In this document: positions 3,535 to 42,510 of the stretch, piece after piece
How positions within the stretch are numbered: position 1 is the first letter of the stretch
Layout: each line of letters begins with the position of its first letter
Assembly: GCF_017832975.1 (NCBI RefSeq)
Contig: NZ_JAFIBI010000001.1
Span: 1,612,001-1,676,000, forward strand
Reading direction: 5' to 3'
DNA length: 64,000 nt
From: Arthrobacter sp. PvP023
GTDB lineage: Bacteria; Actinomycetota; Actinomycetes; Actinomycetales; Micrococcaceae
Translations under genes and position numbers: made by a program
Notes under the pieces: generated by a model
What the model was told of the DNA's origin: nothing
What the model saw: only the letters and a program-made list of their open reading frames with translations
Database searches by the model: none

Positions 3535-5763
3535 ATGCCCGAAAATCACAACGACGCCATCAACGAAACGGCTACTGCCGAGACCACCGAGACGGCCGTA
3601 GAAACCCCCGAGACCGCCGCTCCCGTAGCCGGTTCCGCCCCCGTTTTCACCGAGGCCCCGGCACCCGCCGAGGCGCCCGCCGCTGAAGAACGTCCGGCCG
3701 CCGAGGCGCCCGCCGCTGAAGCCCCGAAGACCGAAGCCCCCAAGGCCGACCCCACCAGCGGCGAGGCTGACACCGAAGCTGAAGGCATTCGTTTCGCCGA
3801 CCTCGGCATCGACGGCCGCGTCCTCGCCGCACTGCAGGACGTCGGCTACGAGAAGCCGTCCCCCATTCAGGCAGCAACCATTCCGCTGCTGCTCGAAGGC
3901 CGCGACGTCGTGGGCCTGGCCCAGACCGGTACCGGTAAGACTGCAGCATTCGCAGTACCGGCACTGTCCCGCCTGGCCGAGCTCCACGACCTCAACGGCC
4001 CGTCCCGCAAGACGCAGGCCCTGGTCCTCGCCCCGACCCGCGAGCTGGCGCTCCAGGTTGCCGAGGCCTTCACCTCCTACGCCAAGCACATTGACGACTT
4101 CACGGTCCTGCCGGTTTACGGCGGCTCCGCCTACGGCCCCCAGCTCGCCGGCCTGCGCCGCGGTGCCCAGGTTGTCGTCGGTACCCCCGGCCGCGTGATC
4201 GACCACATCTCCAAGGGTTCCCTGGACCTGTCCGAGCTCCAGTACCTGGTGCTGGATGAGGCCGACGAAATGCTGCGCATGGGCTTCGCCGAAGACGTGG
4301 AGCAGATCTTCCAGCAGACTCCTTCGGACCGCCAGGTTGCGCTGTTCTCGGCCACCATGCCGAGCCAGATCCGCCGGATGTCCAAGCAGTACCTGAACAA
4401 CCCGGCCGAGATCTCGGTGAAATCCAAGACCACCACCGGTGCGAACACCCGCCAGCGCTACCTGCAGGTCATGGGCCCGCACAAGCTCGACGCGCTGACC
4501 CGCATCCTCGAGGTCGAAGAGTTCGACGGCGTCATCGCCTTCGTGCGCACCAAGATGGCCACCGAGGACCTCGCCGACAAGCTGAAGTCCCGCGGCTTCC
4601 AGGCTGCCGCCATCAACGGTGACATCCCGCAGCAGCAGCGCGAACGCACTGTGGACGCGCTGAAGGAAGGCCGCATCGACATCCTGGTGGCCACCGACGT
4701 CGCGGCCCGCGGCCTTGACGTGGAGCGCATCAGCCATGTGGTCAACTACGACATCCCCCACGACACCGAGTCCTACGTCCACCGCATCGGCCGCACCGGC
4801 CGTGCAGGCCGTTCCGGCGACGCGATCCTGTTCATGACGCCGCGGGAGAAGTACCTGCTCCGTTCCATCGAGAAGGCCACCCGCCAGCCGGTGGAGCAGA
4901 TGCACCTGCCCACGGCCGAGACCGTGAACACGCTGCGCCTGGGCAAGTTTGCCGAGCGCATCACCGAGACCCTCGCGTCCGAAGATGTTGCACCGTTCCG
5001 CGACCTCATCTCCTCCTACGAGGAAGAGCACAACGTCCCGGCCTCGGAGATCGCGGCAGCACTGGCCGTCATGGCGCAGGGCGGCCAGCCGCTCCTGGTG
5101 AAGGAACTGCCTGCAGCTCCCGAGTTCCAGAAGCGCGAGCGCTCCAAGGACGGCTTTGGCTCACGCGGCCCGACCCGCACCCTGACCGAGGGTAACGCCA
5201 CCTACCGGATCGCCGTCGGACGCCGCCAGCGCGTCATGCCGGGTTCCATCGTCGGCGCCATTGCCAACGAAGGCGGCATTTCCTCGGCCCAGATCGGCGG
5301 CATTGACATCCGATCGGACCACTCCCTCGTGGAGCTTCCGGCGGACCTCAGCCCCGAGCAGCTGCGTGCACTGTCCCGCACCCGGATTGGCGGCGAGCTG
5401 ATCCACCTCGAGCTGGACAACGGCCGCAAGCCCTCCGGTGGCGCCGGTGAGCGTGGCGGTTACCAGGGCAACCGTGGCGGCGACCGTGGCGGGTACTCCG
5501 GCGGCGGAGACCGTGGCGGCAACTTCAAGGGCAACGGCGGGTTCAAGAAGGAATTCCGCAAGAACGACGGCGAGCGGTCCTCCGCTGACCGTGGCGGCCG
5601 CTCCTTCAGCGACCGTTCGGAGCGCAGCGTGGGCGCTGACAGCGGCGCCAGCCGCGGCCAGGCCAGCGACTCCCGCTTCGGCGGCCACGGCGACGGTGCA
5701 CGCAAGCCGCGCCATGGCAACGAAGGCGGACACCGCGACTTCAACCGCAAGGGCAAGTGGTAA
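3535..5763 (+). CDS. deaD: DEAD-box ATP-dependent RNA helicase (DeaD/CsdA type)
   Basis: This helicase is expected to unwind RNA duplexes in ribosome assembly and mRNA turnover, notably in the cold. The 742-residue product has an acidic Ala/Glu/Pro-rich N terminus (1-80) and the two RecA domains: Q motif, Walker A AQTGTGKT (about 130), DEAD box VLDEADEM at 239-246, SAT, ARGLDV, and HRIGRTGRAGR. A DbpA-type RNA-binding domain follows (about 555-625), then a Gly/Arg-rich tail with repeated RGG-like units. The start is ATG 3535, downstream of GAGGAAA. The reading frame stays open upstream to 3349, but that part is proline/arginine-rich junk. An alternative start is ATG 3514. A strong terminator follows. 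Confidence 0.92.
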   Translation: MPENHNDAINETATAETTETAVETPETAAPVAGSAPVFTEAPAPAEAPAAEERPAAEAPAAEAPKTEAPKADPTSGEADTEAEGIRFADLGIDGRVLAALQDVGYEKPSPIQAATIPLLLEGRDVVGLAQTGTGKTAAFAVPALSRLAELHDLNGPSRKTQALVLAPTRELALQVAEAFTSYAKHIDDFTVLPVYGGSAYGPQLAGLRRGAQVVVGTPGRVIDHISKGSLDLSELQYLVLDEADEMLRMGFAEDVEQIFQQTPSDRQVALFSATMPSQIRRMSKQYLNNPAEISVKSKTTTGANTRQRYLQVMGPHKLDALTRILEVEEFDGVIAFVRTKMATEDLADKLKSRGFQAAAINGDIPQQQRERTVDALKEGRIDILVATDVAARGLDVERISHVVNYDIPHDTESYVHRIGRTGRAGRSGDAILFMTPREKYLLRSIEKATRQPVEQMHLPTAETVNTLRLGKFAERITETLASEDVAPFRDLISSYEEEHNVPASEIAAALAVMAQGGQPLLVKELPAAPEFQKRERSKDGFGSRGPTRTLTEGNATYRIAVGRRQRVMPGSIVGAIANEGGISSAQIGGIDIRSDHSLVELPADLSPEQLRALSRTRIGGELIHLELDNGRKPSGGAGERGGYQGNRGGDRGGYSGGGDRGGNFKGNGGFKKEFRKNDGERSSADRGGRSFSDRSERSVGADSGASRGQASDSRFGGHGDGARKPRHGNEGGHRDFNRKGKW

Positions 5764-6262: not shown

Positions 6263-6385
6263 GTTTTAAGCACCCGATCCAACGGAACCCCTGCTTAGGC
6301 GTACCGGTCGGCTGCCGGGACGGCATGGCAGTCAGCACAGGCATAGAGGGCCTGGTGCTCGCAGGTGTTGGCCAGACCGGCGTCC

Positions 6386-6493
6386 TTAGTGGCGGTGAGA
6401 CCTTGCGCGGACCGTGGCCGAGGCAAGACCTGCGGCGGCTATCAGGGATCCGACCATGATGGCAACGCCTGAGAGGTATTCAGTGAAAGTCAT
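6386..6493 (-). CDS. Small membrane protein, 35 residues
   Basis: I do not recognise a family. The ORF begins MTFTEYLSGV, continues into one hydrophobic helix (about residues 8-28), and ends in the basic tail RARSHRH. A GGAAGG Shine-Dalgarno sequence lies 9 bases before the ATG, which is the main reason to believe it is translated. It lies on the minus strand between the tRNA pair and the YidC-like gene, about 120 bases downstream of a second membrane micro-ORF. A positive-inside C terminus would place the N terminus outside. Function unknown. Confidence 0.45.
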   Translation of the reverse strand: MTFTEYLSGVAIMVGSLIAAAGLASATVRARSHRH

Positions 6494-42331: not shown

Positions 42332-42360
42332 TTGATGCGGCCGGATCCGGCACGTATAGT
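42332..42360 (+). promoter_or_regulatory. Promoter for a putative small RNA
   Basis: TTGATG (42332-42337), exactly 17 bases, then TATAGT (42355-42360), a close match to the sigma-A consensus. It faces right, away from mshD and into an intergenic stretch that ends in a strong terminator. Confidence 0.6.
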
Positions 42361-42366
42361 CATTAC

Positions 42367-42510
42367 CTGTTCCGGCTTCCTGAAGCGGGAACTGAGGGGG
42401 ATCCACCACTGGGGTGGCCTCGATACGTTCGACCCGTATGTCCTCCACTGCAGGCCTCTAAGCCAACGAAGAAGCCCCGGACCATTGGTCCGGGGCTTCT
42501 TCGTTGCGTT
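42367..42510 (+). ncRNA. Candidate structured small RNA between mshD and glnR
   Basis: A consensus-like promoter upstream and a 19-bp terminator stem at the end delimit a transcript of about 140 nt on the plus strand, while both flanking genes are on the minus strand. Three hairpins are predicted: 42369-42392 (GTTCC-GCTT with AAGC-GGAAC), 42403-42417 (CCACC/GGTGG), and 42423-42439 (ATACG/CGTAT), and GGCCT (42416-42420) can also pair with AGGCC (42452-42456). No ORF with a ribosome site is seen. It is not 6S, SRP, 6C or tmRNA by inspection. Existence rests on signals only. Confidence 0.45.
42465..42505. terminator. Perfect 19-bp palindromic terminator
   Basis: AACGAAGAAGCCCCGGACC, loop ATT, then its exact complement ending in TTCGTT. 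It follows glnR on the minus strand and would also end the candidate small RNA on the plus strand, so it can work in both directions. Confidence 0.88.

What the first reader, a model, noticed from the sequence alone, without database searches (positions are those of the whole stretch)
42332..42510. Possible undescribed small RNA between mshD and glnR
Seen: a TTGATG-17 bp-TATAGT promoter, three hairpins and a perfect 19-bp bidirectional terminator frame a plus-strand transcript of about 140 nt in a gap where both neighbouring genes run the other way. No ribosome site or ORF is present. Inference: a structured small RNA next to the global nitrogen regulator, possibly linked to nitrogen or redox control.
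Basis: partly seen in the sequence, partly recalled or inferred. Interest (0 to 1): 0.65.

Follow-up and report, generated by a model that had tools for sequence, protein, structure and literature searches.

The report
Mini-tRNA without anticodon, probably carrying alanine
Between two ordinary genes of a soil bacterium lies a tiny RNA that looks like a tRNA stripped of its codon-reading arm; relatives often keep it beside a shortened alanine-loading enzyme and an enzyme that attaches amino acids to membrane lipids, so it is probably a dedicated carrier of alanine for work outside protein synthesis.

Summary
Window 42396-42447 (52 nt, plus strand) is a tRNA mimic: 7-bp acceptor stem, D-arm-like hairpin, no anticodon arm, T-arm with a UUCRANN loop, discriminator A73. 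CCA is encoded in 78 of 160 collected loci, not in the window. G3.U70 with A73 is the alanine identity set. Compensatory changes support the D-like and T-arms. No Rfam family matches. It is a cassette: eight RNA-less congeners keep mshD and the regulator gene 32-50 bp apart, against a role in nitrogen or redox control. All 5 accepted model hits outside the family lie beside a short alanyl-tRNA synthetase; 30 of 36 loci away from mshD lie near that enzyme, an MprF-like aminoacyl-tRNA:lipid transferase or an esterase. Best explanation: a dedicated alanyl donor RNA, most likely for lipid alanylation. Within Micrococcaceae the MprF correlation is loose, so that last step is inferred. Expression and charging are untested.

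The parts
42332..42360 (+). sigma-70-type promoter: -35 TTGATG (42332-42337), -10 TATAGT (42355-42360)
   Evidence: 1 found, 0.2 expected; TATAGTC invariant in 15 of 15 loci that I chose to align
42369..42392 (+). 5' leader hairpin, variable in sequence and length among congeners
   Evidence: fold; variation
42396..42447 (+). mini-tRNA body (52 nt, G1 to A73): acceptor stem, D-like hairpin, T-arm, no anticodon arm
42396..42402 (+). acceptor stem 5' strand GGGGGAU (positions 1-7; G3 pairs with U70)
42403..42417 (+). D-arm-like hairpin CCACC-ACUGG-GGUGG
   Evidence: compensatory changes at 3 of 5 pairs
42418..42422 (+). short linker CCUCG where an anticodon arm and variable loop would lie
   Evidence: weakly conserved
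42423..42439 (+). T-arm AUACG-UUCGACC-CGUAU with canonical T-loop
   Evidence: compensatory changes at 4 of 5 pairs across families; T-loop list
42440..42446 (+). acceptor stem 3' strand GUCCUCC (positions 66-72)
42447..42448 (+). discriminator A73 and C74; CCA not fully encoded here (ACUG), encoded in 78 of 160 collected loci
42464..42506 (+). intrinsic terminator, perfect 20-bp stem, 3-nt loop
   Evidence: stems of 12 bp or more (G-T allowed) downstream of the RNA in 113 of 157 loci against 3 of 157 shuffled

Best explanation
The gap encodes a stand-alone mini-tRNA of 52 nt. A primary transcript from the promoter at 42332-42360 carries a leader hairpin, the tRNA-like core and a terminator. 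RNase P would free G1, and 3' trimming plus the CCA-adding enzyme would give the CCA end in this species (inferred). Alanyl-tRNA synthetase reads G3.U70 and A73 and loads alanine; in this genome that must be the ordinary enzyme, in many other actinobacteria that have the RNA a short one encoded beside it (loading inferred). Lacking an anticodon arm, Ala-RNA cannot decode on the ribosome; it serves as alanyl donor for aminoacyl transfer outside translation, most likely by the MprF-like transferase that would alanylate membrane lipid, with the partner esterase able to remove it. Shown: RNA family, structure, tRNA geometry, alanine identity elements, encoded CCA in many relatives, physical linkage. 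Inferred: expression, processing, charging, donor role.
For: Structure: RNAalifold on its own recovers acceptor, T-arm and three D-like pairs. For the imposed structure 97.8% of cells pair, with 72 doubly changed cells against 20.2 (sd 4.7) in shuffles and covariation score 0.292 against 0.111, both 0 of 500 shuffles. Alanine: G3.U70 and A73 in 43 of 43 distinct rows and in the five accepted model hits outside the family, which no pattern had selected, though the models were trained on rows invariant there; tRNA-Ala genes fetched from the window genome share GGGG...CUCCA, the UGC one GGGGG...CCUCCACCA; G3.U70 as determinant: PMC9976931 (passages). CCA follows A73 in 78 of 160 loci, about 10 expected. 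Elbow: RNAs with a UUC T-loop have GG in the D-like loop; the five with UGC lack it as drawn (read from the list). Linkage: short AlaRS beside 5 of 5 accepted outside hits; 30 of 36 non-mshD loci have AlaRS, esterase or MprF-like gene (Pfam identities of examples). The L066 AlaRS aligns over its length (3-459) with residues 5-438 of the 441-residue chain 3hxu (E. coli origin recalled); residues aligned with E. coli N303 and D400 (recalled as G3.U70 readers) are kept in 18 and 19 of 21 rows (two proteins occur twice). Inside the family, the one locus of 58 away from mshD (G223; the contig of equal length is Arthrobacter cryoconiti) has the RNA some 385 nt before the aligned part of an MprF-like gene followed by the esterase, same strand. 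The window genome has such an operon elsewhere.
Against: No expression or charging data. The acceptor stem hardly varies, so its pairing rests on geometry and invariance, not covariation (one U.G to C-G change, L127). Pattern-found loci had acceptor strands, T-loop core and AC imposed. The number of further pair types did not exceed shuffles (242 of 500), and the innermost D-like pair is missing in 12 of 43 rows. In Micrococcaceae the RNA does not track the lipid operon: 19 of 95 RNA-positive genomes lack PF09924; 8 of 8 RNA-negative congeners have esterase and MprF-like gene; on 80 genomes strong MprF-like hits are in 27 of 39 RNA-positive and 20 of 41 RNA-negative (my count). Six of 36 non-mshD loci have none of the three genes. 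The window genome shows no second AlaRS. The window RNA lacks an encoded CCA. Three short AlaRS have lost a recalled G3.U70-reading residue. The amino acid used by these MprF-like proteins was not tested.
Confidence: 0.6

Rival explanations
1. The same alanyl mini-tRNA, but feeding Fem/MurM-type transferases that build alanine-containing peptidoglycan bridges rather than lipid alanylation, at least in Micrococcaceae.
For: FemAB (PF02388) is found in 248 of 295 family genomes, including RNA-positive genomes that lack PF09924 (for example G005, G173, G200, G204). Alanine-tRNA use in cell-wall synthesis and dedicated non-proteinogenic tRNAs are known (PMC9976931 section 91). Arthrobacter cross-bridges with alanine are recalled, not tested.
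Against: The recurrent neighbours identified are AlaRS, esterase and MprF-like genes; none of the ten neighbour proteins scanned with Pfam was FemAB, but the other neighbours were not scanned. In the genus, strong FemAB hits are commoner in RNA-negative genomes (8 of 8) than in RNA-positive ones (5 of 16; my count).
Confidence: 0.15
2. A regulatory or decoy RNA: an uncharged tRNA mimic that binds AlaRS, RNase P or another tRNA-binding protein, or pairs with ribosome-binding sites through its CCUCC strand.
For: The acceptor strands are almost invariant, perhaps stricter than charging alone needs, and CCUCC resembles an anti-Shine-Dalgarno sequence (recalled).
Against: Encoded CCA in 78 of 160 loci and a short AlaRS next to many of the RNAs are not needed for a decoy; CCUCC is paired in the conserved structure. 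No target search was made.
Confidence: 0.15
3. Ordinary unknown sRNA tied to mshD or the neighbouring regulator.
For: 57 of 58 family loci lie beside mshD.
Against: Clean absence in eight congeners that keep both genes; other neighbours outside the family.
Confidence: 0.04
4. Degenerate tRNA gene, palindromic repeat or other relic without function.
For: Repeats and tRNA relics are common (recalled); the window core alone folds no better than shuffles (z -0.32).
Against: Near-invariance amid diverged flanks, compensatory changes, downstream stems and -10-like hexamers above shuffles (5 of 6 matches in 45 of 157 against 8 of 157), one model match in the window genome.
Confidence: 0.02

Closest known systems
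Non-proteinogenic tRNA-Gly of Staphylococcus aureus (peptidoglycan bridge donors)
   Same: dedicated aminoacyl donors outside translation; T-stem pair 51-63 is among the EF-Tu elements lost there (PMC9976931 section 91); here 51-63 is A-U or U-A in 158 of 158 loci
   Different: those are full tRNAs with anticodon arms (recalled); this RNA has none, carries alanine identity, and in many relatives has a synthetase beside it
tRNA-like domain of tmRNA
   Same: alanine identity, acceptor plus T-arm plus D-like loop, no anticodon arm (recalled)
   Different: no mRNA-like domain, 52 nt in all, not matched by Rfam
LysX (LysRS fused to MprF) and fungal ErdS (AspRS fused to a transferase)
   Same: synthetase and lipid transferase coupled in one system (PMC9437257 and PMC10580965, passages)
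   Different: no dedicated RNA is named in the passages seen; here a separate RNA is part of the cluster and the synthetase is a free-standing short AlaRS
Alanyl-diacylglycerol synthesis of Corynebacterium glutamicum
   Same: MprF homologue making alanyl-diacylglycerol (PMC10580965 introduction, passages; tRNA-dependence from the cited title)
   Different: no dedicated RNA is mentioned in the passages seen; the 2015 paper itself was not available
Pseudo-tRNA tRNA-Other of Bacillus cereus
   Same: tRNA-like RNA outside translation (PMC3399842, abstract)
   Different: [quoted passage not shown] no synthetase or transferase cluster in the abstract
AlaRS minihelix substrates
   Same: acceptor plus T-arm with G3.U70 and A73 (alanine identity section of PMC9976931, passages)
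   Different: those are laboratory constructs (recalled); this is a natural gene with an extra D-like arm

Membership tests
canonical tRNA | anticodon arm | tested here: not met
   in the window only 5 nt lie between the D-like hairpin and the T-arm, similar in all aligned rows
canonical tRNA | match to tRNA models | tested here: not met
   not called by ARAGORN or RF00005 (one search lists 50 tRNAs of G000 at E <= 10, not this RNA)
canonical tRNA | 7-bp acceptor directly followed by 5-bp T-arm with 7-nt UUCRANN loop | tested here: met
   (acceptor pairs without covariation)
canonical tRNA | CCA end | tested here: inconclusive
   encoded in 78 of 160 loci, not in the window; addition by enzyme not testable
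alanine-accepting RNA | G3.U70 and A73 | tested here: met
   GU in 43 of 43 distinct rows, including 5 outside-family model hits not chosen by pattern
alanine-accepting RNA | aminoacylation by AlaRS | not testable with these tools
   needs biochemistry
tmRNA | mRNA-like domain with tag peptide | tested here: not met
   52-nt body; no tmRNA called in the window
any Rfam 15 family | score at or above gathering threshold | tested here: not met
   sub-threshold hits fall mainly on the terminator
bacterial Y RNA (YrlA) | Ro-binding stem and tRNA-like module | not tested
   considered from memory; no Rfam family matched; Ro homologue not searched
MprF/aminoacyl-lipid system | aminoacyl-tRNA:lipid transferase in the genome | tested here: met
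   window genome: PF09924 protein directly after an esterase-like gene, elsewhere on the chromosome; not universal among RNA-positive genomes (76 of 95)

The most novel reading that the evidence does not exclude
A natural, anticodon-less alanyl mini-tRNA forms, with a dedicated short alanyl-tRNA synthetase, a tRNA-dependent lipid transferase and an esterase, an alanine-delivery system insulated from the ribosome and spread over several actinobacterial families; in Micrococcaceae the RNA has become a free cassette charged by the ordinary AlaRS.
Probability: 0.55. Interest if true: 0.95.

Novelty: categorically new. Interest (0 to 1): 0.88.

Why it matters
[quoted passage not shown] A dedicated donor RNA with no anticodon arm, sometimes with its own synthetase, would be a direct answer and makes the question testable in soil bacteria. 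It would also be a natural counterpart of the minihelix substrates of AlaRS: a gene product reduced to the acceptor/T half plus an elbow. The RNA has no match in Rfam 15, and none of the listings of ten searches of the held open-access library names such an RNA.

Tried and rejected
Rfam at loose threshold gave sub-threshold hits mainly on the terminator. Weak model hits outside the family that I read (L067, L068, L069, L129) were rejected: they lack the T-loop, arms or acceptor; the other weak hits (E about 0.005 to 0.1, among them L070-L082, and two at 7.7e-4 and 0.0016) were taken as chance without reading them. FemAB as partner: no clean partition. Strict co-occurrence with MprF or esterase inside Micrococcaceae: not met. 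No match on plasmids. Records labelled Vibrio cholerae 35D (L138), Sporosarcina (L178) and an Acidobacteria MAG (L164) carry mshD and the regulator at 53-82% identity to the window's and are read as contamination or misbinning; 'Kitasatospora arboriphila' (L147) shares its neighbour clusters with Williamsia, so its label is doubted. The neighbour clusters come from a crude ORF caller of mine; only those confirmed by Pfam or tblastn are used. The canonical AlaRS row in the alignment was a wrong reading frame and is ignored. Of the 40 loci without an mshD hit, four (L025, L148, L171, L223) were set aside as truncated mshD-type loci before the 30 of 36 count; one of the 36 (L193) is itself a Micrococcaceae locus. 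L127 is not in the 158 and 160 regex counts, because its acceptor and T-loop differ from the regex. Family and class searches used stricter filters that lose weak matches.

Full report
Observation. The terminator stem has 20 pairs, not 19; one terminator-like site in the 1.2 kb scanned is not above the 0.8 expected as a count, though a perfect 20-bp stem is long. Both neighbours are on the minus strand: mshD (TIGR03448, 346.8 bits against a cut-off of 163.1) and an OmpR-type regulator for which none of the 25 NCBIfam matches shown reaches its cut-off. The transcript part upstream of the terminator folds no better than shuffled sequence (z -0.41), so energy alone would not have justified the claim; conservation does.

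Conservation in the genus. A search of 150 congeneric genomes with the 280-bp gap gave matches in 117; by my count 104, the window's own included, have a best E of 1e-17 or less and 13 only weak matches. The 30 best distinct loci carry an identical 55-mer except at one loop position (C, A or G), while promoter spacer, leader hairpin, linker and terminator vary. TATAGTC is invariant in the 15 loci I chose to align.

Structure. The core (42394-42448) can fold as a three-way junction within 0.2 kcal/mol of its minimum, and the junction has tRNA geometry: GGGGGAU/GUCCUCC acceptor of 7 bp; a 5-bp hairpin CCACC-ACUGG-GGUGG; five linker bases; a 5-bp T-arm AUACG/CGUAU with the 7-nt loop UUCGACC, followed at once by the acceptor's 3' strand and A73. 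There is no anticodon arm. A covariance model built with this structure found the RNA at E < 1e-10 in 95 of 295 genomes of the family (tallied), in 11 of 32 genera by my reading; 21 further genomes had only weaker matches, taken as chance. In alignment A4 (49 distinct rows) 99.8% of cells pair, with 31 doubly changed cells against 7.6 in shuffles. Alignment A5, with other families (43 distinct rows), gives 97.8% paired, 72 doubly changed cells against 20.2 (0 of 500 shuffles) and a covariation score of 0.292 against 0.111 (0 of 500); pairs with a change on both sides were 7 against 5.4 (18 of 500 shuffles as high), and further pair types did not exceed shuffles (242 of 500). Both alignments were fitted to the structure; RNAalifold, which predicts its own, recovers the acceptor, the T-arm and three D-like pairs. 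T-arm pairs change jointly between families, D-like pairs within and between families. The acceptor does not covary: it is nearly invariant, with one pair-preserving change at 7-66 (L127). In 12 of 43 distinct rows the innermost D-like pair is not formed.

tRNA signatures. After A73, CCA is encoded in 78 of 160 collected loci, where chance for the last two bases would give about 10; the window and most of its congeners that I fetched do not encode it. T-loops are UUCRAYY in 155 of 160 loci and UGCRAUU in 5 (the regex allowed only these forms); reading the list, the 5 UGC loops belong to RNAs whose D-like loop, as drawn, lacks GG, the others have GG there, as expected if the two loops touch in a tRNA elbow. 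G3.U70 is present in all 43 distinct rows. Even there a model trained on invariant columns favours such hits. G3.U70 is the main alanine determinant (PMC9976931, passages). The tRNA-Ala genes among those fetched from the window genome show similar ends.

Neighbourhoods. In the family 57 of 58 loci lie beside mshD. In 30 RNA-negative family genomes that I chose, mshD was found in all and the regulator in the same stretch in 29; in the eight congeners the gap between the two genes is 32-50 bp, computed from the coordinates, against 280 bp in the window, with no promoter, RNA or terminator. The RNA is therefore a removable cassette. Outside the family the picture changes: all five accepted model hits lie next to a short AlaRS; a sixth hit (L129, E 0.0085) was not accepted. 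The L066 enzyme, 464 aa from the start I chose, matches PF01411 (profile 1-431 of 552) and no other Pfam family and aligns over its length with chain 3hxu, residues 5-438 of 441. A pattern scan of GTDB species genomes gave 96 stretches, among them Pseudonocardia, Gordonia, Williamsia, Microbacterium, Agromyces, Pseudoclavibacter, Nakamurella and a Rhodococcus MAG (titles). Of 158 distinct loci, 118 have mshD in the stretch; of the 36 others that are not truncated mshD-type loci, 30 have at least one of short AlaRS, PF00756-type esterase and PF09924 MprF-like transferase within the fetched stretch, 8 have all three (Pfam names of examples). The six without are a short contig (L154), Nakamurella (L217) and four Williamsia copies whose strains have another, linked copy (L134, L144, L198, L225). 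None of the 118 mshD loci has these genes within its fetched stretch (about 2.3 to 8 kb).

Inside Micrococcaceae the lipid link is weaker. The window genome has an esterase-like gene directly followed by an MprF-like gene of 882 aa elsewhere, 36% and 38% identical over the aligned parts to the Williamsia proteins; a search with the L066 enzyme found only one AlaRS gene, of long frame. PF09924 is found in 76 of 95 RNA-positive and 90 of 200 RNA-negative genomes (Fisher p 1e-8, not corrected for relatedness). Against a strict link: 19 RNA-positive genomes lack PF09924, and all 8 RNA-negative congeners tested have both genes. For it: the one family locus of 58 that is not beside mshD (L050, G223; the contig of the same length is Arthrobacter cryoconiti) has the RNA about 385 nt before the aligned part of an MprF-like gene, followed by the esterase, all on one strand. 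FemAB gave no partition.

Mechanism. I propose transcription, RNase P processing, CCA completion, alanylation by AlaRS, and donation of alanine outside the ribosome, most likely to lipid. The T-stem pair 51-63, one of those lost in S. aureus tRNAs that escape EF-Tu (PMC9976931 section 91), is A-U or U-A in 158 of 158 loci, in line with evasion of EF-Tu; tRNA-Ala genes were only compared by eye. Every step after the sequence level is inference.

Literature. Ten searches of the open-access library listed no paper that names such an RNA; subscription papers and preprints are not held, and the C. glutamicum alanyl-lipid paper was not available. Papers seen: PMC9976931 (passages and section 91), PMC10580965, PMC10485164, PMC9437257, PMC9130861, PMC12306157 (passages), PMC3399842 (abstract and outline). 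The table passage of PMC9437257 lists AlaRS paralogues as carrier-protein ligases.

Noticed in passing
L168:4514-4566 and 5260-5312 (minus): Arthrobacter sp. Br18 carries two copies of the RNA about 700 bp apart with two partial matches to the regulator gene, as if RNA and regulator had been tandemly duplicated.
   Followed up: no
L159:2700-2753 and 6363-6416: Gordonia desulfuricans has two RNA copies within 4 kb flanking an MprF-like gene, the second just upstream of the short AlaRS.
   Followed up: no
(genomes of genus g1): Strong FemAB (PF02388) hits are present in 8 of 8 RNA-negative congeners and 5 of 16 RNA-positive ones (my count), an inverse relation not corrected for phylogeny.
   Followed up: no
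L125, L153, L159 (short AlaRS): Three short AlaRS (Gordonia and a Rhodococcus MAG) lack the asparagine, and two of them the aspartate, aligned with the recalled G3.U70-reading residues, although their RNAs keep G3.U70.
   Followed up: no
L085:1177-1231 (minus): One family member has U1 opposite C72, opening the first acceptor pair.
   Followed up: no
L138, L178, L164, L147: Records labelled Vibrio cholerae, Sporosarcina, Acidobacteria and Kitasatospora carry neighbourhoods of Micrococcaceae or Williamsia type, so these labels look wrong or the assemblies contaminated.
   Followed up: partly
   Followed up: no
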